Virus record (IMG/VR): IMGVR_UViG_3300027865_000358
Coordinates: 1-20,501 of that record
Direction: 5' to 3' (one strand)
Source: a virus
Length of the DNA: 20,501 nucleotides
Shown here: piece by piece, positions 7,658 to 20,149 of the stretch
How positions within the stretch are numbered: the first letter of the stretch is position 1
Layout of the letters: each line of letters opens with the position of its first letter
Translations under genes and position numbers: made by a program
Notes under the pieces: model-generated
Told to the model about the DNA's origin: nothing
What the model saw: only the letters and a program-made list of their open reading frames with translations
The model's database searches: none

Positions 7658-8626
7658 ATGGGGATAGCATTTGCAGGACCTTGGATAGGAGAATTCGGGT
7701 GGGAAATCATGACTTGGGTTCCTTATCTCAGGAAGCTGAGTCGGGATTACGAGAAGATGATCATATCGACGTTTGAAGGCGTGGAGGCGTTGTATTCGGG
7801 ATTTCATTGCGAGTTGGAATTTCGACCGCATACAGATCAAAAGCGTGTTGATGGCTGGACGGAAGTCAACTGGCCATATGTAGGGATCGAATTGGAAGCG
7901 TATCATATCAAGCCCATCAAGCAATATAAAGTCGATGGCGAATACGTCCGATATGGATCGCCTGTTGTTCAGGATGCTGTTGTTTTGTTCCATGCCAGAG
8001 GGATACAGACGGCGGCATTCAAGAACTGGGATATTGAGAAATGGGCGGTCTTGGCGAAGGAATTCCCAAGCGCAATCTCGATAGGGTCAAAGGATGACCT
8101 GCATGTTCCGGGAACAGGGGACGCCAGAGGCATGTCTCTTGGCTCTCTAATGGACTTGGTAGCGTCTGCCAGCATAGTTATAGGGCAGAGCAGCGGCGTG
8201 ATGCACCTGGCGGCAATGTGCGGCACTCAGCAGCTTGTCTGGGCGGATAACAAGACCTATTTCAACGAGCCATTGGAAAAGAGATACCAGGAGACGTGGA
8301 ATCCGTTTGGAACACCGGTCACATGGATCGATTGCGACAACTGGGACCCGCAGCCAGATCAGATCATGCAAGCATTGAAGCCCAAGCATAGCATTCCGAA
8401 TACCCAGGTATTAAGCGTGATATATGATGCCGTGCAGTCAGGTCAATATATAATCGGTGTGGCGCATGTAGGCGAAAAGGATAATAAAGCGGCTGTGATG
8501 GCTAAGAGCATCGGTATCAACTTCCCTGATAGTATGCTGGAGCAGGCAGAAGAGCAGCTGTTCAAGAGCGTTCGCGGGTCGATTGCGAAGGCGAAGGCGG
8601 AGAGGATGCCGGTGTCATGGCGATAA
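7658..8626 (+). CDS. GT9-like glycosyltransferase
   Basis: This 322-aa protein begins MGIAFAGPWIGEFGWEIMTWVPYLRKL. The diagnostic part is residues ~158-186, MSLGSLMDLVASASIVIGQSSGVMHLAAMCG, which matches the GT9 (ADP-heptosyltransferase-type) C-terminal motif, where a helix after the gSG..H.Aa loop binds the sugar nucleotide. The C-terminal ~70 residues are an added helical region. It begins 12 nt after a tail-tip gene with its own AAAAGGGGATAAA site, and its end overlaps the next glycosyltransferase by 10 nt. The donor and acceptor cannot be read from sequence. Confidence 0.75.
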   Translation: MGIAFAGPWIGEFGWEIMTWVPYLRKLSRDYEKMIISTFEGVEALYSGFHCELEFRPHTDQKRVDGWTEVNWPYVGIELEAYHIKPIKQYKVDGEYVRYGSPVVQDAVVLFHARGIQTAAFKNWDIEKWAVLAKEFPSAISIGSKDDLHVPGTGDARGMSLGSLMDLVASASIVIGQSSGVMHLAAMCGTQQLVWADNKTYFNEPLEKRYQETWNPFGTPVTWIDCDNWDPQPDQIMQALKPKHSIPNTQVLSVIYDAVQSGQYIIGVAHVGEKDNKAAVMAKSIGINFPDSMLEQAEEQLFKSVRGSIAKAKAERMPVSWR

Positions 8627-10659
8627 AGGTCGAACTTCATAACGCTCAGTTTATTGGCGACTTGATAACGGGGACGCCAGCTGTCAGGGACATGGCTGCT
8701 GCCCGTCGATGTACTAAATGCGGAATGGAGGCATTTGTTCCGAGTAAGGCGAAAGTTGATGTCATATCATGCCCGAACTGCGAGCGAGAATCCTTCAAGC
8801 ATAAATTTCGAGTGAGGTTTAATACAGGCGGAAAGCCGGCTTTTCAGCAGATATTCTACGGGAATCCGTATATCGACAATTTCGCAGGTGCCCCTGATAT
8901 ATCGCTGCGAATTGGAACACAAACAGCGTGCAATAGGTCAAGCTCTCTGGGCTGCCATATAACCGAAGCATTCAGAATGTCGATCATGGAGAAGACTGAC
9001 TTTGATTTTCCGATGGGTCCGCTCGTCCCCGATCTGCACTTGACCGAAGACGAAAAGGCCCTGCCGCCTATTATAGATGGCAGATACTGGCTTATAGCCA
9101 ACGGCAAGCGGCCGCCGTTTACGTCGAAATTCTGGCCGCCTGAGAGATGGCAGGCCGTCGTCTCTGAGCTTTCCGAGATAACTTTTGTCCAGATTGGACT
9201 TGATGACGGGAAGCAGAATTCAGAACATTATCATCCTAAACTCTATGGCGACAACATGATCGACATGATCGGTCAGACACAGGATCCGCGTTCAGGGATC
9301 CGCGATCTATTCCGGCTGGTCTATCATTCAGATGGTTGCCTGTCGCTGGTCAGTAGCCTCATGCACGTAGCCGCCGGATTCGGGAAGCCGTGCGTTATAC
9401 CAGCGGGAGCTAGGGAGCCGGCGCAGTTTGAGATGTATCCGTTCCATAGATACATACATAGCCAGGGAGCCATGAAGTGCGAAGGGCAAGATCTTGATGG
9501 CAATGAACGGGATGCTCAAGGATTGAGGTCATGTTGGAGGGCATCGGCGCGGGCATGTCCGAATCTGGAACAGGGCTATCCTAGATGTATGATGATGATA
9601 GAGCCTTTCCAGGTCGCCAACGGGATCAAGTCGTATTATGTCGGCGGCGCGCTGGAAGCCCCGGAAGGGTCAGCGAGAAAGAGAACCGCAAAGAAGCCCG
9701 TCTTTAAGCTGGTATGTAACGCTCACGCATACGGAGGCGGCGAGCGGTCGGCTGTCTGGATAGCGAATAAGATGCTCCTGGAAGGTTACGACGTTCACCT
9801 TATCCCGGGGCGGAACGTCAGCCGCGAGTTCAGTATGTCCTTATCCCCTCATGTAAAGCTGGATTCCCAGGAGCATCCTCTCACCGAACCATGTGATATA
9901 ATGATGCTATACGCAAACGATATGACCTCCGGATTCGATGGCAGATACAAGCTATTGGAGAGTGTCGAGGCGGATAAAAAAATCATGGTCTTGAATTATC
10001 GCTTGATGCAGGCCGGCACTGTGGAGTGGTCTAAAACATGGGATCGGTATATCTTCCTGTGTTCTGATATGGGACAGGCTTTCAGGAAGTTCGTTCCAGA
10101 TTGCAACGCGAGTATCTTGCCGCCGCCTATCGACCTCCAGCCGTTTCTTGATACCGATCTGGGGTCGCTGGATAAGACGCTGCATGTTGTCAGGGTCGGC
10201 TCGCAGGGAGCGTCTAAGTATCCAGAGAACATCCGGGATATTGTGGAGCGGATAAAAGCCGGTCATCCAGCGGTAAGGTTTACCATGATGGGCGGACATA
10301 AATCGTTGGATGATCTCGATTATGTCACCAATATACCGGAATACAGTCAGCCCGTATTGGATATATTGAAAAAAGGCTGCGTGTTCTGGTATATACTGCC
10401 GCCGGATTATCTTGACAACGGCCCGCGAGTAATAATGGAGGCAATGGCGGCGGGTCTGCCTGTGGTTGCCGATAACAGGGGCGGAGCGAAGGATAGGTTG
10501 ACGCCTGAAACTGGCTGGCTCTGTGATACGGTGGAAGAGCATATCGAAGCGATAGTCAATATAAACAGTAAAGAAACGACCAGGATGGGGCGGAGAGCCA
10601 AGGAAAGGGCGCGGACATTCAAGCCAGAGAAATGGATCGAGGCGGTATTAGATGAATAG
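8617..10659 (+). CDS. Two-domain glycosyltransferase: GT9-like half with zinc ribbon, fused to GT4-like half
   Basis: This is a 680-aa protein. The N-terminal half starts like GT9 enzymes (AQFIGDLITGTPAVRDM), but a four-cysteine ribbon follows at once (C32-x2-C35 ... C52-x2-C55). The GT9 core then continues, with LANGKRPPFTSKFWPPERW-type text and GCLSLVSSLMHVAAGFGKPCV, and a Cys-containing end. The C-terminal half begins at ~366 with VCNAHAYGGGERSAVWIANK and carries NGPRVIMEAMAAGLPVVADNRGG (~601-623), the donor-binding E-x7-G pattern of GT4. One chain can thus add two sugars or act at two steps. The gene overlaps both neighbours (10 and 8 nt). Confidence 0.75.
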   Translation: MAIKVELHNAQFIGDLITGTPAVRDMAAARRCTKCGMEAFVPSKAKVDVISCPNCERESFKHKFRVRFNTGGKPAFQQIFYGNPYIDNFAGAPDISLRIGTQTACNRSSSLGCHITEAFRMSIMEKTDFDFPMGPLVPDLHLTEDEKALPPIIDGRYWLIANGKRPPFTSKFWPPERWQAVVSELSEITFVQIGLDDGKQNSEHYHPKLYGDNMIDMIGQTQDPRSGIRDLFRLVYHSDGCLSLVSSLMHVAAGFGKPCVIPAGAREPAQFEMYPFHRYIHSQGAMKCEGQDLDGNERDAQGLRSCWRASARACPNLEQGYPRCMMMIEPFQVANGIKSYYVGGALEAPEGSARKRTAKKPVFKLVCNAHAYGGGERSAVWIANKMLLEGYDVHLIPGRNVSREFSMSLSPHVKLDSQEHPLTEPCDIMMLYANDMTSGFDGRYKLLESVEADKKIMVLNYRLMQAGTVEWSKTWDRYIFLCSDMGQAFRKFVPDCNASILPPPIDLQPFLDTDLGSLDKTLHVVRVGSQGASKYPENIRDIVERIKAGHPAVRFTMMGGHKSLDDLDYVTNIPEYSQPVLDILKKGCVFWYILPPDYLDNGPRVIMEAMAAGLPVVADNRGGAKDRLTPETGWLCDTVEEHIEAIVNINSKETTRMGRRAKERARTFKPEKWIEAVLDE

Positions 10660-11566
10660 CAAAATACTTTTCTATTTGCAGGAAATGGAACAGATCGAGA
10701 AAAGAGGATGGGCTATACCTGTAACATGCGAGATGGATCCATCAAATAGATGCCAGAACCAATGCGCATTTTGTATATCGAAGAATAGAACCGCTTATGA
10801 TGACATGGATCTTGCATTTGCGCTCGCAATGATTAAGGATCTCCATTATTTAGGTGTGAAGTCTATTACCTTCACCGGCGGCGGTGAGCCGACTATGAAT
10901 CCAGGCTTGCCAAATATGATAGAATTTGCTGCCCTAATCGGCATGAAGATTGGGCTTATTACGAATGGTATCGAGATCGGGGACATCCCTTTCCAGCTTC
11001 TGGAATTTGTCAGGATCAGCCTCGATGCAGGATACGCGGATACATATAAAAAGATAAAACACAATGATGCTTACGAACAAGTAATAGATAATATAACCAA
11101 CATCAGACCATCATGCAAGACGCTTGGTTTGAGTTACGTTATGTGTGGTCAGGGCGAGGTTGATATGGCGCGAGCCGAAAAGTTGGCAGAGGAATTAGCC
11201 GTGGATTATATTCAGTTCAAGCCGGAGATTTCCCAGAGCAATCAGGTATTTTATCCCTCTGCAGATATTAGCTTTTTTACCAAGCGATATGACAGGAACC
11301 GGGACGTTTCTTGCGATATAGCAGGATTAGTAGGCATTATTACTGCCGATGGTAGATATGTATATTGCTGTCAACATAGATATGAAACTGAGTATACTAT
11401 TGCCGATCTCCGGGAAAACAGCCTCGCAGTGGCGATTATCTCCAGAGACAATATGGATATTGATAATACTCAGTGTAAGCTATGCCGATACAGTAATTAC
11501 GCTGAGGAATATACGAGATATAGAGGGCAGCATCACGCCTATATGCTGCACAAGGAGTTCCTGTAG
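10652..11566 (+). CDS. Radical SAM enzyme with C-terminal cysteine cluster
   Basis: This is a 304-aa protein. C34-x3-C38-x2-C41 (CQNQCAFC) is the radical SAM 4Fe-4S motif, and FTGGGEPTMNPG at ~74-85 is the SAM-binding GGE motif. A second set of cysteines (C221, C239/C240, C275-x2-C278) sits at the end in a layout resembling SPASM/Twitch auxiliary-cluster domains. Such enzymes modify peptides, sugars or cofactors; the substrate here is unknown. Overlaps of 8 and 1 nt with the neighbouring glycosyltransferases show co-translation. A sugar-modifying role and a peptide-modifying role are both open. Confidence 0.78.
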   Translation: MNSKILFYLQEMEQIEKRGWAIPVTCEMDPSNRCQNQCAFCISKNRTAYDDMDLAFALAMIKDLHYLGVKSITFTGGGEPTMNPGLPNMIEFAALIGMKIGLITNGIEIGDIPFQLLEFVRISLDAGYADTYKKIKHNDAYEQVIDNITNIRPSCKTLGLSYVMCGQGEVDMARAEKLAEELAVDYIQFKPEISQSNQVFYPSADISFFTKRYDRNRDVSCDIAGLVGIITADGRYVYCCQHRYETEYTIADLRENSLAVAIISRDNMDIDNTQCKLCRYSNYAEEYTRYRGQHHAYMLHKEFL

Positions 11567-12153
11567 TGAAAATCGGCGTTTTGATAACTTCATACGACAA
11601 AACGGCTAATGACATTGGCGCTCTGGCTCGGCCTATGATGGAGCGCGGGTATTATATAGTCATAGGTTATGACGCTCATCAGATTACGCCTTCCGCTGAT
11701 ACGGTCAATAGTTGCGATTTATTCTTCACCGGTGGCGGCTGGAGTGGCGGCGGCTGGAGTGGCAAGCAATTCGGAGAGCTAAGGAACATCAGGACAGGAC
11801 TCGATCTCGTATTATCTCACGGCTGTGATTATGTCCTAAAGCTCAACGGTGATTCAATAGTCGGTAGGCCGGATGGGATACCTGTACTTATCAAGTATCT
11901 AGGCAGTAATGATGTCATGGCATGCCAATGGTGGGATCAATGTGGGACGATGGTATTCTTTGGCAGGTCTGAGCCGTTGGTCAAGGTGTTTTCGACTCTG
12001 GAGCCAGCGCCGCCTCAAATAGAGAAGCGATTTACAGCGGCATTAAAGAGCTATGAAATGAAATATCAAGTCTATCCATGCACAGCAGATGACCAGGGTA
12101 TATGGGGAAAAGCGATTGGCTTCCAGCGCGAAAGCAAGAACTTTCCTCCATAG
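11566..12153 (+). CDS. GT-A/GT2-like glycosyltransferase, frameshifted near its 3' end
   Basis: The GTG at 11566 overlaps the previous stop by 1 nt. The frame gives 195 aa: MKIGVLITSYDK, YYIVIGYDAHQ, a GELRNIRTGLDLVLSHGCDYVLKLNGDS block (~70-97) with an NGDS in the DxD position of GT-A folds, and ADDQGIW near 175-180. The frame stops abruptly at KNFPP. In the +1 frame, coding continues without a break to 12256, so the gene was probably ~231 residues long and carries a 1-nt insertion near 12142-12148. A perfect 15-bp tandem duplication also lies within it. Residual activity is uncertain. Confidence 0.65.
   Translation: MKIGVLITSYDKTANDIGALARPMMERGYYIVIGYDAHQITPSADTVNSCDLFFTGGGWSGGGWSGKQFGELRNIRTGLDLVLSHGCDYVLKLNGDSIVGRPDGIPVLIKYLGSNDVMACQWWDQCGTMVFFGRSEPLVKVFSTLEPAPPQIEKRFTAALKSYEMKYQVYPCTADDQGIWGKAIGFQRESKNFPP
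11734..11763 (+). repeat. Perfect 15-bp tandem duplication
   Basis: Two exact copies of GGCGGCTGGAGTGGC (11734-11748 and 11749-11763) encode GGWSG-GGWSG. This is an in-frame duplication of five residues in the frameshifted glycosyltransferase, consistent with recent replication slippage. Confidence 0.85.
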
Positions 12154-13560: not shown

Positions 13561-14526
13561 ATGGCTATAGACGCATGGACGCAGGTCGGTTCGCAGTTGA
13601 ACGGACAAAATGTGGTTGATTCTCTAGTGGCCTATAATGGTAAATTGTACGGCGGAATGGGAAGTACCGGCCGTTTATTCGAATGGGACGATAACGCCGC
13701 CTGGGTAGAGAAAGCAGGGCAATTAAATGTGCAGACGCGGATCTTTAGCCTGGCAGTCTATAATGGTAAGCTTTACGGAGGGACAGCGAGTACCGGCCGT
13801 TTATTCGAGTGGGACGATAACGCCGCCTGGGTAGAGAAAGCAGGGCAACTGAATAGCCAGACTGTCATATATAGCTTGGCGGTCTATAACGGCAAGTTGT
13901 ATGGCGGCACTTCACCTGGAGGCCGTTTATTCGAGTGGGACGATAACGCCGCCTGGGTAGAAAAGGCTGGCCAATTAAATGGGCAAGACGCTATATATTC
14001 TTTAACCGTATATAATAATATATTATACGGCGGCACTTATGATGGTGGTTTGGCAGGCGGTCGTTTATTTGAATGGGATGGTTTAAGCAACTGGGTAGAG
14101 AAAGCAGGGCAACACGACACCGAGCGCTCTATTGAGTCGCTGGCGGTATACAATTCAAAACTTTACGGCTGCACTACGAATAGCTCCCCGGCAGGCGGCG
14201 GGCTATTGCTTGAGTGGGATGATAGCAACGCCTGGGTAGAAAAGGCTCCAAAGCTAAATAGCCAATTCGAGATGTGGGCTATGGCAGTATATCGCGGCAG
14301 GCTCTATGGTTCGACAGGAACCGGAGGGCGTTTATTCAGATGGAATGACAACAACGCCTGGGAGCAAGTTGCTATAGAGCTAAACGGACAGACGAGAATA
14401 ATGTCTCTCGCCGTCTATAGGGGCAGGCTCTATGGTGGGACGCTCGAAAGTGGGACAAGTACCGGCGGCCGTCTATTTGAATTCGGAGAAGCCGCTGGCC
14501 AGGTAATCAGCATCAATATTATATAG
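13561..14526 (+). CDS. Seven-bladed beta-propeller (Kelch/YncE-like repeat) protein
   Basis: This 321-aa protein is made almost wholly of seven ~41-47 aa repeats of the form QLNGQTxIxSLAVYNGKLYGGT...GRLFEWDDNAAWVEKAG. The N-terminal AWTQVGS supplies the strand missing from the last blade (GRLFEF), the usual closure of a propeller. Blades 1-3 are nearly identical, while blades 4-7 diverge and have longer loops. AGGATAAG precedes the ATG. The protein probably forms a binding disc on the virion, perhaps for receptor or glycan recognition. No signal peptide is visible. The fold is inferred from the repeats. Confidence 0.75.
   Translation: MAIDAWTQVGSQLNGQNVVDSLVAYNGKLYGGMGSTGRLFEWDDNAAWVEKAGQLNVQTRIFSLAVYNGKLYGGTASTGRLFEWDDNAAWVEKAGQLNSQTVIYSLAVYNGKLYGGTSPGGRLFEWDDNAAWVEKAGQLNGQDAIYSLTVYNNILYGGTYDGGLAGGRLFEWDGLSNWVEKAGQHDTERSIESLAVYNSKLYGCTTNSSPAGGGLLLEWDDSNAWVEKAPKLNSQFEMWAMAVYRGRLYGSTGTGGRLFRWNDNNAWEQVAIELNGQTRIMSLAVYRGRLYGGTLESGTSTGGRLFEFGEAAGQVISINII
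13650..13975 (+). repeat. Near-identical propeller-blade DNA repeats
   Basis: The segment coding GRLFEWDDNAAWVEKAG occurs at about 13672-13722, 13795-13845 and 13921-13971 with only a few base changes, at a period of ~123-126 bp. The identity extends to synonymous positions, so these blades were copied recently or are kept alike by recombination. Confidence 0.8.
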
Positions 14527-17597: not shown

Positions 17598-18335
17598 ATG
17601 AATAAAAACAGTATGTTATATTGGTGGCCGCTGGTAAGGGACTTGAATATACCTATGCCTGAGACGCATATAGTCGAGCTCAACATGACATATGATGAAG
17701 TCTTTGGCGTCCTTGATGGTGAGAAGTCATCCGCTGATGCCTGGGCCAGGCAATTACCCGCCATACGAAAGGCTGTGGAGCGTGTAGGCGTTCCTGCCTT
17801 TGTACGGACTGACCATACGTCAGGGAAGCATGACTGGGATCTAACCTGCTATCTCGAAGGCAGTGATGATAAAAGCCTGAAAAGGGCGATAGTTGGGCTG
17901 GTGGAATGCAGCTCTCTGGCGGATCTGGATATTGAGGCGTTAATAGTGCGAAAGTATATACCCATGCTGACAGGCTTCACCGCCTTTGTACGCGAGATGC
18001 CGATCAATCCAGAGCGCAGATACTTTGTCAGGGACGGCGCGGTTGAGTGCCATCATCCGTATTGGAGCGCCGAGGCTATTGAGCAGGGCTCGCGGTATCT
18101 CAATTTGGCGGAGAATTGGGAGGAGCTACTGTGGGAAATGAACTACGAACCGGATGATGAGGTCGAGTTGCTATCAAAATACGCGGTTTTGGTAGGCGCG
18201 TGCGTAAAAGGCTACTCGAGCGTAGACTTCTGTAAGGCAGCGGACGGTAGCTGGATATTTATTGATATGGCAGAAGGCGGAAGATCAGAGCATCCCGCCT
18301 GTAGCTATGGGGAGTCCGATTCAGATGTAGAGTGA
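17598..18335 (+). CDS. ATP-grasp domain protein
   Basis: The product is 245 aa, with AAAGGAG before the ATG. Recognisable blocks are WARQLPAIRKAVERVGVPAFVRTDHTSGKHDW (residues ~49-80, with the nucleotide-loop RTD...SGKH), GFTAFVREMPINPERRYFVRDG (~126-147), CHHPYW (151-156) and GSWIFIDMAEGGRSEHP near the C-terminus. They match a phage- and bacteria-borne ATP-grasp group. ATP-grasp enzymes usually join a carboxylate to an amine or thiol through an acyl-phosphate; the substrate here is unknown. The gene holds one copy of a 48-bp repeat that recurs, in another frame, at 20044. Confidence 0.75.
   Translation: MNKNSMLYWWPLVRDLNIPMPETHIVELNMTYDEVFGVLDGEKSSADAWARQLPAIRKAVERVGVPAFVRTDHTSGKHDWDLTCYLEGSDDKSLKRAIVGLVECSSLADLDIEALIVRKYIPMLTGFTAFVREMPINPERRYFVRDGAVECHHPYWSAEAIEQGSRYLNLAENWEELLWEMNYEPDDEVELLSKYAVLVGACVKGYSSVDFCKAADGSWIFIDMAEGGRSEHPACSYGESDSDVE
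17737..17784 (+). repeat. 48-bp exact direct repeat, copy A (in the ATP-grasp gene)
   Basis: The sequence starts ATGCCTGGGCCAGGCAATTA and ends GGCTGTGGAGCGTG, and is identical over 48 bp to 20044-20091. Here it encodes WARQLPAIRKAVER, a conserved-looking part of the ATP-grasp family, so this copy is probably the source. The flanking bases differ. Confidence 0.95.
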
Positions 18336-18406
18336 TAAAATAGAAAAGCGTAATGATTCCAAATGGGCTAACGGGAAGGAATACTGACTTCCTAGAAGGA
18401 GATAAA

Positions 18407-18826
18407 ATGAAGACATTATTTGTGATTGCAGCGTTAATACTTTTTTGTTCTGGCGCGCATGGACTATATGTGTATCAGGTAACCACCGATGATCCCCAGG
18501 ACCCGGATGTTGTCTGGACAACGATCCCTGAGTCAGATATAACATACGATGTGGAGCCTGGGGATACTTCTGGCGTGCCCAAGATCCATGAAACAGTGCC
18601 AACGCACAACAGCTTTGATGATGATGATATTCAGGAATGGTATGTAGACGCTCCGAATAAATGGTGGCGTCTGGTCAGCTTTTCGGCTTCGGCAGCGGGG
18701 ATCGAGTTTACGGGTGGCGCAATAGGCGTCAGGTACTTCTTCCGATATGCCAAGCAGCCCGGAGGTTGGTTTTCTCCAGAGAATAGTGTCACGATCATAC
18801 AGCCCGGACTTCCTATTCACCAGTGA
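18407..18826 (+). CDS. Secreted protein with signal peptide (139 aa)
   Basis: The ATG at 18407 follows AGAAGGAGA; an upstream in-frame ATG at 18353 lacks an RBS. The N-terminus MKTLFVIAALILFCSGAHG is a Sec-type signal, probably cut after AHG. The cysteine lacks a clean lipobox. The mature part is acidic and Trp/Asp-rich (DDPQDPDVVWTTIPESDITYDVEPGD), with strand-forming segments later. It is the last rightward gene before the convergent minus-strand pair. It may act in the periplasm or at the cell surface, for example in superinfection exclusion. I do not recognise a family. Confidence 0.62.
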   Translation: MKTLFVIAALILFCSGAHGLYVYQVTTDDPQDPDVVWTTIPESDITYDVEPGDTSGVPKIHETVPTHNSFDDDDIQEWYVDAPNKWWRLVSFSASAAGIEFTGGAIGVRYFFRYAKQPGGWFSPENSVTIIQPGLPIHQ

Positions 18827-18856
18827 TAAGTGTCAAACAGCCCATTAAATCATCCA

Positions 18857-19048
18857 TCATACCATCCCTACGCATTCAGCATCGCAAGTCTCCACGCGCG
18901 GCTTAATTGGCCGCTTGATGATCTCTATCTCGCGGCCTTGCATAGCGCGCTCCATATCTTCATCAGCTTTGGCGGCGATGCGGCAGAGGGAGTAGATGAT
19001 GAGGTAGCCTATGATGATTAGAACGAGTAGTATGTGGTACATTACCAT
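18857..19048 (-). CDS. Small single-span membrane protein (63 aa)
   Basis: The start at 19048 overlaps the stop of the HTH gene (TAATG read on the minus strand), so the two form an operon; an ATG two codons inside (19042) is an alternative. A hydrophobic span follows at once (ILLVLIIIGYLIIYSL), then a charged tail (KADEDMERAMQGREIEIIKR). The plus-strand frame in the same place (18830-19021) lacks an RBS and is judged a shadow. The role is unknown; membrane proteins next to lysogeny regulators are often exclusion factors. Confidence 0.58.
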   Translation of the reverse strand: MVMYHILLVLIIIGYLIIYSLCRIAAKADEDMERAMQGREIEIIKRPIKPRVETCDAECVGMV

Positions 19049-19245
19049 TATTTATCGCCTTTTCGTATTTCTTCCAATAAATCCAGGTCTACATGCTTAA
19101 TTTTTACATATCGCTCAACAATGGTGCGCTTTAATATTCCTTTCGTAGACGTAGGAATGTTATGCCTGGTAATCGCTTGGTGTATATTTTGTTTTGAACA
19201 ACCCAATGCTTCGGCGGCTTCTTTTATCGTGACTAATCTTGCCAT
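19048..19245 (-). CDS. Small HTH DNA-binding regulator
   Basis: The product is 65 aa, with AAGGAGA (read from 19257 to 19251) before the ATG. Residues ~5-31, VTIKEAAEALGCSKQNIHQAITRHNIP, are a clear helix-turn-helix of the HTH_17/excisionase type, followed by a short basic and acidic tail. It is read leftward from a consensus promoter (19315-19287) and faces rightward early genes. Matched TTGAC-N8-GTCAA sites cover the -35 boxes of both promoters, so it is the likely repressor or switch protein. An excisionase-like role is the alternative. Confidence 0.72.
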   Translation of the reverse strand: MARLVTIKEAAEALGCSKQNIHQAITRHNIPTSTKGILKRTIVERYVKIKHVDLDLLEEIRKGDK

Positions 19246-19286
19246 ATGATTCTCCTTTTTAATATGTTGCTAAAAAATACACTTTA

Positions 19287-19315
19287 ATCATATCATATTG
19301 ACTAGGTATTGTCAA
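19287..19315 (-). promoter_or_regulatory. Leftward promoter of the regulator operon
   Basis: On the minus strand: TTGACA (19315-19310), 17-nt spacer, TATGAT (19292-19287). Both hexamers are close to consensus with ideal spacing. The predicted transcript starts ~35 nt before the HTH start codon. Confidence 0.78.
19298..19315. promoter_or_regulatory. Operator O1 (TTGAC-N8-GTCAA)
   Basis: TTGAC TAGGTATT GTCAA is an 18-bp dyad with 5-bp arms and an 8-bp centre. It overlaps the -35 and spacer of the leftward promoter. The same arms and centre length recur in O2, and the centres share A at position 7 and TA at positions 10-11 of the 18-mer. Confidence 0.65.
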
Positions 19316-19327
19316 CTTTTTTTCTTA

Positions 19328-19361
19328 AATAATAGGATTATTCTATAAAAAGCCTATTATT
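19328..19361. repeat. 9-bp inverted repeat between the two promoters
   Basis: AATAATAGG (19328-19336) and CCTATTATT (19353-19361) are perfect arms around an AT-rich 16-bp centre, about midway between O1 and O2. It may be a binding site for a second factor such as a host protein, or a third operator of a different type. Confidence 0.55.
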
Positions 19362-19364
19362 AGC

Positions 19365-19382
19365 TTGACAAACTAAAGTCAA
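19365..19382. promoter_or_regulatory. Operator O2 (TTGAC-N8-GTCAA)
   Basis: TTGAC AAACTAAA GTCAA has the same arms and 8-bp centre length as O1. It covers the -35 box of the rightward promoter, so binding here should block RNA polymerase. Confidence 0.65.
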
Positions 19383-19393
19383 TGTGGTATCAT
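19365..19393 (+). promoter_or_regulatory. Rightward early promoter
   Basis: TTGACA (19365-19370), 17-nt spacer, TATCAT (19388-19393). This is a near-consensus sigma70 promoter reading into the small genes from 19520 onward, divergent from the regulator promoter. Confidence 0.78.
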
Positions 19394-19519
19394 TAAGGTG
19401 TTAGGACGAAGCAAGGTTCTTTGAAAACGTCGGATAACTCAATGTTCAACATAGCTCGCAAGTAGCAGGCAAGACGTAGCCAGGGAAAGCGAGTGATAAT
19501 ACAACGCAAGGAGAAGACA
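19394..19519 (+). promoter_or_regulatory. Untranslated leader of the early transcript
   Basis: About 120 nt lie between the rightward promoter and the first ATG. A weak CTCGC/GCGAG pairing (about 19456-19495) precedes the RBS block CAAGGAGAAGACA. No gene is seen here. Confidence 0.45.
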
Positions 19520-19741
19520 ATGACGACAAGAGATGCTTTGGCAAGCAAGATGGAACTCCAGGAAGAGACTGATAACGTATCGCATAACCTTAAAATGTTC
19601 GGAGCAACCACAAACGACCGCGCTTTGGGAGAGTTCTTGAGCAAGGCAAATCAAGAGTTTCAGCAGATCATCAAGGACGGCAAGCCGACTCTCTGGAACA
19701 CTTGGAATTGTGAGCTTGATAGGCGTGGAAGGTTAATGTAG
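19520..19741 (+). CDS. Small early protein (73 aa)
   Basis: The ATG at 19520 follows AAGGAG (19508-19513); an upstream in-frame start is inferior. The protein is charged and helical (ASKMELQEETDNVSHNLKMF, LGEFLSKANQEFQQIIKDG), ending CELDRRGRLM. It has no membrane span or recognised domain. It is the first gene behind the rightward promoter and is followed by a terminator-like hairpin. Confidence 0.6.
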   Translation: MTTRDALASKMELQEETDNVSHNLKMFGATTNDRALGEFLSKANQEFQQIIKDGKPTLWNTWNCELDRRGRLM

Positions 19742-19761
19742 CCATAGTAGACGAATACACG

Positions 19762-19790
19762 CGGTCGCAGTTAGTCAAGCCGCGACCGTC
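19762..19790 (+). terminator. Terminator-like hairpin after the first early gene
   Basis: CGGTCGC (19762-19768) pairs with GCGACCG (19782-19788) around a 13-nt loop, followed by a pyrimidine-rich TCTTTCTCCTTATT. The T-run is weak, so it may be a partial attenuator or a processing site. Confidence 0.45.
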
Positions 19791-19857
19791 TTTCTCCTTA
19801 TTGCCGCAAGGGGGTGATTCCAATGTTCTAGCCACCGCCACATATTATCATATACCA

Positions 19858-19883
19858 GCCGGCGGTTTCTATGGGCCGCCGGC
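19858..19883 (+). promoter_or_regulatory. GC-rich leader hairpin before the second early gene
   Basis: GCCGGCGG (19858-19865) and CCGCCGGC (19876-19883) form a perfect 8-bp stem with a 10-nt loop. It ends 8 nt before the AAGGAG of the gene at 19904. A comparable hairpin sits before the gene at 20232. Confidence 0.6.
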
Positions 19884-19903
19884 AACACACAAGGAGAAGA
19901 AAA

Positions 19904-20149
19904 ATGAGTAAAGAGATCGTAGTAGACGGCATCGTTTATGTTCCAAAAGACGACGCGGTCGAGGGCGTTAACAAGCCTAGGGAATGCAGATTCCCGGCCG
20001 CGGTGGATAGAATTACAGTGATCGAAGCGATAGAAATCCTGGAATGCCTGGGCCAGGCAATTACCCGCCATACGAAAGGCTGTGGAGCGTGGTTAGTTCC
20101 GGTGCCGGTTCCGGTGACGGTTACGGTTCCGGTTGAGAAAATGAATTGA
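19904..20149 (+). CDS. Small early protein containing a captured 48-bp segment (81 aa)
   Basis: The ATG at 19904 follows ACACAAGGAGAAGA. The protein begins MSKEIVVDGIVYVPKDDAVEG and continues through VIEAIEILE. It then enters sequence encoded by copy B of the 48-bp repeat (CLGQAITRHTKGCGAW) and ends in LVPVPVPVTVTVPVEKMN, coded by hexamer repeats. The first ~45 residues look like the original protein, while the last third looks assembled from the repeat and the hexamer run. The function is unknown. Confidence 0.58.
   Translation: MSKEIVVDGIVYVPKDDAVEGVNKPRECRFPAAVDRITVIEAIEILECLGQAITRHTKGCGAWLVPVPVPVTVTVPVEKMN
20044..20091 (+). repeat. 48-bp exact direct repeat, copy B (in a small early ORF)
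   Basis: Identical to 17737-17784, same orientation, 2307 bp away. The reading frame differs by one base from copy A, so it encodes CLGQAITRHTKGCGA here and WARQLPAIRKAVER there. Copy B is followed directly by a hexamer repeat run. Confidence 0.95.
20095..20136 (+). repeat. Hexamer tandem repeat (GGTTCC-type)
   Basis: About seven degenerate 6-bp units (GGTGCC, GGTTCC, GGTGAC, GGTTAC, GGTTCC and similar) encode the Val-Pro/Val-Thr dipeptides VPVPVPVTVTVPV. They follow immediately after the 48-bp repeat. Confidence 0.75.

What the first reader, a model, noticed from the sequence alone, without database searches (positions are those of the whole stretch)
17737..20091. 48-bp exact repeat shared by two genes in different reading frames
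Positions 17737-17784 and 20044-20091 are identical over 48 bp. In the ATP-grasp gene the segment encodes WARQLPAIRKAVER, which fits that family; in the small ORF at 19904 it is read one base out of phase. The ATP-grasp copy is therefore the likely donor and the second a recent capture that supplied new coding sequence. The pair also flanks 2.3 kb that includes the regulator and both divergent promoters, so recombination between copies would remove the switch.
Basis: partly seen in the sequence, partly recalled or inferred. Interest (0 to 1): 0.75.

Follow-up and report, generated by a model that had tools for sequence, protein, structure and literature searches.

The report
Phage gene end overwritten by copy
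A 48-letter piece of one phage gene was copied, out of reading frame, over the end of another small gene that has also lost its core, which looks like an ordinary copying accident in a decaying gene rather than the birth of a new function.

Summary
The 48-bp exact direct repeat is real (17737-17784 = 20044-20091), far beyond chance, and the only such pair in the 20.5-kb virus record. Copy 1 lies in an intact R2K_3 ATP-grasp gene, where it fits a helix kept in homologues. Copy 2 lies in ORF 19904, which is a rearranged DUF6948 gene. It keeps the family's N-terminal VVDGxxYVPK leader and C-terminal half, but lacks about 53 core residues that 119 of 120 relatives keep in frame. Similarity to relatives stops exactly at base 20043, where copy 2 begins, and resumes at a GGTTCC-type array just after it. 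The copy therefore replaced the family's conserved end (TxxAxxSIxxVPVWxx-stop). 'Capture of new coding sequence' is not shown; the acceptor looks like a degraded gene. Most likely mechanism: short templated replacement (template switch or double illegitimate recombination) joined at a 4-nt microhomology, which is inferred. Side finding: in 94 of 120 DUF6948 genes the conserved V/I-W end hides the ATG of an overlapping ORF encoding (Gly-Ser/Tyr/Asp)n. The 48-bp event overwrote that start here.

The parts
17598..18335 (+). Donor gene: R2K clade family 3 ATP-grasp (245 aa), intact against 27 homologue rows
   Evidence: PF14243 E=2.8e-9; homologues 31-50% identical over most of the length; profile alignment
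17737..17784 (+). Copy 1 of the 48-bp repeat, encoding part of the helix before the conserved VPxFxRTD block (AWARQLPAIRKAVER)
   Evidence: fits the homologue profile at p about 0.013-0.019
19904..20149 (+). Acceptor ORF (81 aa): rearranged DUF6948 gene, N-terminal leader MSKEIVVDGIVYVPKDD plus C-terminal half AVEGVNKPRECRFPAAVDRITVIEAIEILE(C), core of about 53 residues missing
   Evidence: PF22253 partial match 18-53; own profile from 118 relatives, 41 bits over residues 18-53; leader found intact in L032, L118, L180
20044..20091 (+). Copy 2 of the 48-bp repeat, overwriting the DUF6948 C-terminal end; its first four bases ATGC may be shared with the native E-C codons
   Evidence: DNA similarity to L180 ends at 20043; the segment in this frame scores no better than random peptides once the C is granted (38%)
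20096..20134 (+). Short hexamer array (GTTCCG-type, 6.5 copies), remnant of the array that follows most DUF6948 genes; reads VPVPVPVTVTVPV in the DUF6948 frame and GAGSGDGYGSG in the -1 frame
20044..20136 (+). Possible overlapping ORF in the -1 frame, MPGPGNYPPYERLWSVVSSGAGSGDGYGSG, whose ATG is the first three bases of copy 2
   Evidence: same relative frame as the (Gly-X)n ORF in relatives; expression not shown
19048..19245 (-). HTH_17/excisionase-like small regulator between the copies
   Evidence: PF12728 8e-6; TIGR01764 1.2e-4; both below the curated cut-off
19287..19393 (.). Divergent sigma-70-like promoters between the copies
   Evidence: Two 11/12 consensus matches with TG before the second hexamer

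Best explanation
A 48-nt stretch of the ATP-grasp gene was copied about 2.3 kb downstream, same strand, over the 3' end of a DUF6948 gene. It replaced roughly 75 nt (compared with relative L180) that held the conserved C-terminus, its stop codon and the start of an overlapping (Gly-X)n ORF. Inferred route: a one-off template switch or double illegitimate recombination during phage DNA replication, joined on the left at the microhomology ATGC (donor GATGCC, acceptor GAATGC). The acceptor had lost, or then lost, its core by an in-frame deletion of about 53 residues, so it was probably free of selection as a DUF6948 protein. The remaining 81-aa frame is the old DUF6948 frame running through foreign sequence into the old array. 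Shown: the repeat, the donor and acceptor genes, the position of the boundary, the lost core. Inferred: mechanism, order of events, loss of function.
For: Exact 48-bp repeat with unrelated flanks. The DUF6948 relatives keep a conserved end at this place; one natural exception (L144/L145, same sequence) also lost it, by fusing to the array. DNA alignment to L180 keeps similarity up to CTGGA at 20043 and again in the GGTTCC array. The donor segment fits ATP-grasp homologues (245.7 bits against a mean of 239.4, top 1.3%; the other two phases give 240.3 and 232.2). In the acceptor frame the segment is ordinary (8.8% of random peptides score as well, 38% with C granted) while a family-typical end would give 56 bits rather than 41. 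Only one other of about 120 DUF6948 genes (L049, split by a frameshift) lacks the core in frame. No third copy in the record, in IMG/VR (a 25-base exact core), phages or plasmids.
Against: Only one genome carries it, so neither the order of events nor its fixation can be shown. The donor fit is moderate (p about 0.015) and the window's ATP-grasp has about 3 extra residues in that helix against most homologues. In the acceptor frame K-G-x-x-x-W of the family end recurs (TKGCGAW), which weakly favours the reverse direction. The 81-aa frame stayed open through the rearrangements, which could mean selection. No reads were available to exclude an assembly fault.
Confidence: 0.72

Rival explanations
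1. New gene by capture: the copy supplied functional new coding sequence to ORF 19904, which now makes an 81-aa chimeric protein, and/or to the -1 frame ORF, which makes MPGPGNYPPYERLWSV-(Gly-X)n.
For: The 81-aa frame is open, has a good ribosome site (AAGGAG) and keeps the DUF6948 frame on both sides; the -1 frame keeps the relative phase found in relatives and regains an ATG.
Against: The DUF6948 core is missing. 11% of 48-mers of this window are open in all three forward frames, so openness is weak evidence. No relative carries the chimera, so no sign of selection can be measured.
Confidence: 0.12
2. Assembly or library artefact: the second copy was created by a chimeric read or misassembly.
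For: The record is a metagenomic virus contig and no close relative is available; copy 2 is 410 bp from the contig end. Contig-end repeats are seen in other contigs.
Against: Both copies have four distinct flanks, and a 48-bp repeat is shorter than a common read. A simple misjoin would give one new junction, not two. Copy 2 is not at a contig end.
Confidence: 0.1
3. Reverse direction: the segment is native to the DUF6948 gene and was copied into the ATP-grasp gene.
For: A conserved-looking A and K-G-x-x-x-W in the acceptor frame; ATP-grasp is about 3 residues longer there than most homologues.
Against: Profile tests favour ATP-grasp; DNA similarity to DUF6948 relative L180 stops at the repeat edge.
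Confidence: 0.05
4. A functional repeated DNA site, for example a protein-binding site built on the near-palindrome TGCCTGGGCCAGGCA at the left of each copy, used for regulation or recombination of the 2.3-kb switch region.
For: The 15-bp near-palindrome lies in both copies; regulator and divergent promoters lie between the copies.
Against: Only two copies, both inside ORFs, none at the promoters; identity extends over 48 bp with sharp edges rather than over a site; folding of the region is not unusual (z = -1.4). No match in other phages.
Confidence: 0.03

Closest known systems
Double illegitimate recombination / short templated replacement in bacteria (Hulter and Wackernagel 2008, seen in the reference list of PMC8116780; the short-patch form, SPDIR, from memory)
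   Same: A short unrelated DNA segment from elsewhere replaces a stretch with little or no homology at the edges.
   Different: Shown in Acinetobacter baylyi; here a virus genome, one event, 48 nt, inferred from sequence only.
Templated insertion by microhomology-mediated template switching (MMBIR; e.g. PMC8421209)
   Same: Short copy from another template joined at microhomology.
   Different: Described in eukaryotic cells; the polymerase and break here are unknown, and the right-hand microhomology cannot be seen.
DUF6948 (PF22253) phage genes
   Same: ORF 19904 keeps the leader and the C-terminal half.
   Different: Core deleted, C-terminal end replaced by the 48-bp copy, following array short.
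R2K_3 ATP-grasp (PF14243)
   Same: Donor gene is a full member by sequence.
   Different: About three extra residues in the helix that carries the repeat.

Membership tests
DUF6948 (PF22253) | C-terminal half CxFPxxVxxVxLxEAIEIL | tested here: met
   41 bits against a profile of 118 relatives, residues 18-53; Pfam 24.3 bits, below the cut-off of 27
DUF6948 (PF22253) | Core RTYSAGVFAGEL..NARRxWYWxGAASLSQLA | tested here: not met
   Absent from the ORF and found nowhere else in the record
DUF6948 (PF22253) | C-terminal end TxxAxxSIxxVPVWxx and stop | tested here: not met
   Replaced by the 48-bp copy
R2K_3 ATP-grasp (PF14243) | Profile match over the domain | tested here: met
   37.8 bits, cut-off 26.3
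R2K_3 ATP-grasp (PF14243) | Residues invariant among homologues kept in the window protein | tested here: met
   Aligns over its whole length with four homologues without loss of the motifs they share
R2K_3 ATP-grasp (PF14243) | Ligase activity | not testable with these tools
Short templated replacement (double illegitimate recombination, SPDIR-like) | Donor copy kept intact elsewhere in the genome | tested here: met
   Copy 1 intact in the ATP-grasp gene
Short templated replacement (double illegitimate recombination, SPDIR-like) | Acceptor sequence lost at the site | tested here: met
   About 75 nt of relative L180 have no counterpart
Short templated replacement (double illegitimate recombination, SPDIR-like) | Microhomology at both edges | tested here: inconclusive
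   ATGC possible on the left; the right edge cannot be judged without the ancestor
Mobile element or dispersed repeat family | Further copies in this or other genomes | tested here: not met
   None in the record, IMG/VR (25-base exact core), phages or plasmids

The most novel reading that the evidence does not exclude
The copied 48 bp re-armed a two-frame gene end: it kept the DUF6948-derived frame open and, with its own ATG at the first base, gave a new start to the overlapping (Gly-Ser/Tyr/Asp)n frame, so that one templated patch created new termini for two overlapping phage proteins at once.
Probability: 0.07. Interest if true: 0.6.

Novelty: new member of a known kind. Interest (0 to 1): 0.36.

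Why it matters
It is an example of out-of-frame gene patching in a phage with donor and acceptor both identifiable, which is useful for asking how often short templated copies reshape small phage genes. It also warns that a long exact repeat in a small ORF may mark decay rather than invention. The larger lead is what the event overwrote: a conserved overlap of DUF6948 with a Gly-Ser/Tyr/Asp dipeptide-repeat ORF, seen in most relatives, for which no description was found in the library searched.

Tried and rejected
Chance repeat. Mobile element or wider repeat family. Regulatory palindrome. Reverse copying, after noticing TKGCGAW against the family's SIKGVPVW: tested with random peptides and not significant. 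A general hot spot for copied segments beside the arrays: in 30 genomes only 3 of 37 repeat pairs touch an array, and in those both copies lie beside arrays; not supported as a cause of the window's case. Search for close relatives by ORF 19904, ORF 19520 and the tape-measure gene gave none that covers this region. Literature searches for DUF6948 and for (Gly-X)n phage repeats found nothing relevant; the SPDIR paper is not in the library.

Full report
Observation. The repeat is exactly as described: 48 identical bases at 17737-17784 and 20044-20091, same strand, 2307 bp apart. It is the longest exact repeat in the window; the others of note are tandem repeats in one gene (13.6-14.4 kb) and ribosome-site sequences. 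Composition predicts about 5e-21 such pairs, and there is no third copy even with three mismatches. Among 60 pieces of 15-20 kb from 30 other virus contigs, dispersed exact repeats of 48 bp or more occur in three: two end at a contig terminus and one is a local duplication. The feature is therefore real and uncommon.

Donor side. The gene at 17598-18335 is an R2K_3 ATP-grasp with homologues in virus contigs and in a few archaeal and bacterial MAG contigs. The repeat encodes AWARQLPAIRKAVER, in a predicted helix (by pattern, no structure was computed) just before the conserved VPxFxRTDxxSGKHxW block. In 27 aligned homologue rows this stretch varies, but it has the same pattern, a hydrophobic residue, then A, then [LIVF]G. 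Replacing the 15 residues by random peptides from the same window gives a mean of 239.4 bits; the real segment gives 245.7, in the top 1.3% (1.9% against coding peptides only). The other two phases of the same DNA give 240.3 and 232.2. The segment is thus native there, with moderate statistical weight.

Acceptor side. Residues 18-53 of ORF 19904 match the C-terminal half of DUF6948. Two scans of IMG/VR gave 158 loci with this gene, 120 distinct. They end almost without exception in an 18-residue tail, (D/N/P)(V/C)TxxAxxSIxxVPVWxx. The N-terminus of ORF 19904, MSKEIVVDGIVYVPKDD, is also DUF6948: three intact relatives begin MKKIIVDGVTYIPE, MKEIKVDGITYVPK and MEKEVKIDGVVYVPK. Aligned to L180 the window lacks about 53 residues, the most conserved core, RTYSAGVFAG..NARRLW.W.GAASLSQL. 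At DNA level the match to L180 runs to CTGGA at 20043, stops where the repeat starts, and resumes in a GGTTCC array at about 20096. About 75 nt of L180 are replaced by 52 nt here. The segment in the acceptor frame is no better than random peptides (8.8%; 38% once the first C, likely native, is granted), while a family-typical end would add 15 bits. The copy in ORF 19904 is the newcomer.

What was overwritten. In relatives the DUF6948 gene is followed at once by an array of hexamers GGY-(TCN/TAY/GAY) (85 of 120 with a strict pattern, median 14 nt after the stop, 79 of 85 in the same phase). The array is read as (Gly-Ser/Tyr/Asp)n in the -1 frame from an ATG formed by the V/I and W codons of the DUF6948 end: 97 of 120 genes have it, and in 94 the frame runs into the array. 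The V/I codon there is GTA or ATA in 86 of 100 cases, against 22% elsewhere in the same genes. The residues are Ser 656, Tyr 508, Asp 361 but Ala only 9, although Ala is the fourth combination of the same bases, so the choice appears to be made at protein level. In the window this start was replaced by the 48-bp copy, and the array is 6.5 units long. The tail VPVPVPVTVTVPV of ORF 19904 is this old array read in the DUF6948 frame. L144/L145 show an independent case of a DUF6948 end lost by fusion to the array (DCTKPAMAMAMAMANN).

Mechanism. Best supported is a short templated replacement: 48 nt copied from 2.3 kb upstream on the same strand, with a possible left microhomology ATGC (donor GATGCC; acceptor GAATGC, since relatives often have E/D-C there). 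The kind of event is known as double illegitimate recombination or template switching in cells; which enzyme did it here is unknown. Because the core of the acceptor is gone as well, the locus reads as a DUF6948 gene in decay. Whether the 81-aa frame or the 30-aa -1 frame (MPGPGNYPPYERLWSVVSSGAGSGDGYGSG, 20044-20136) is made cannot be told from one genome.

The switch. Regulator and divergent promoters do lie between the copies, and a crossover would delete them and leave a 63-residue ATP-grasp stub. Nothing shows that this happens; 48 bp is short for general recombination (own knowledge).

Verdict. Observation confirmed; direction of copying supported; 'capture of new coding sequence' not supported. 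It is an ordinary kind of event with unusually clear anatomy. The overlapping DUF6948/(Gly-X)n pair is the part worth following.

Noticed in passing
L010-L095 and L112-L190 (120 distinct DUF6948 genes); window 20096-20134 is a remnant: The conserved V/I-W end of DUF6948 hides the ATG of an overlapping -1 frame ORF encoding (Gly-Ser/Tyr/Asp)n: ATG in 97 of 120, running into the array in 94; GTA/ATA used in 86 of 100 V/I codons there against 22% elsewhere; Ala almost absent (9 against Ser 656, Tyr 508, Asp 361). No description was found in the paper library.
   Followed up: partly
L144 3000-3136 (same in L145): A DUF6948 gene whose end was lost by fusion to the array (AIEILDCTKPAMAMAMAMANN), an independent parallel to the window.
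   Followed up: partly
L022 2918-3500: Two copies of the (Gly-X)n ORF with the same leader (MNKNNNFIDS) on either side of the DUF6948 gene; Bacteroides phage ARB14 (MT074134.1) has 10 places that match the window's array. The ORF seems able to multiply within a genome.
   Followed up: no
window 13632-14441: 126-bp repeats in one gene (13561-14526) coding for about 42-aa units (LAVYNGKLYGGT..GRLFEWDDNAAWVEKAGQLN), with parts of neighbouring units 89-98% identical, as if recently duplicated.
   Followed up: no
window 7658-12153: A block of glycosyltransferase-9-like, radical SAM/SPASM and further genes in the tail-gene region of this virus.
   Followed up: no
L252, L254, L255: The ATP-grasp gene has relatives in contigs of archaeal MAGs (Nanoarchaeota, Archaeoglobus, Nitrosotalea) as well as in virus contigs; whether these are proviruses was not checked.
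   Followed up: no
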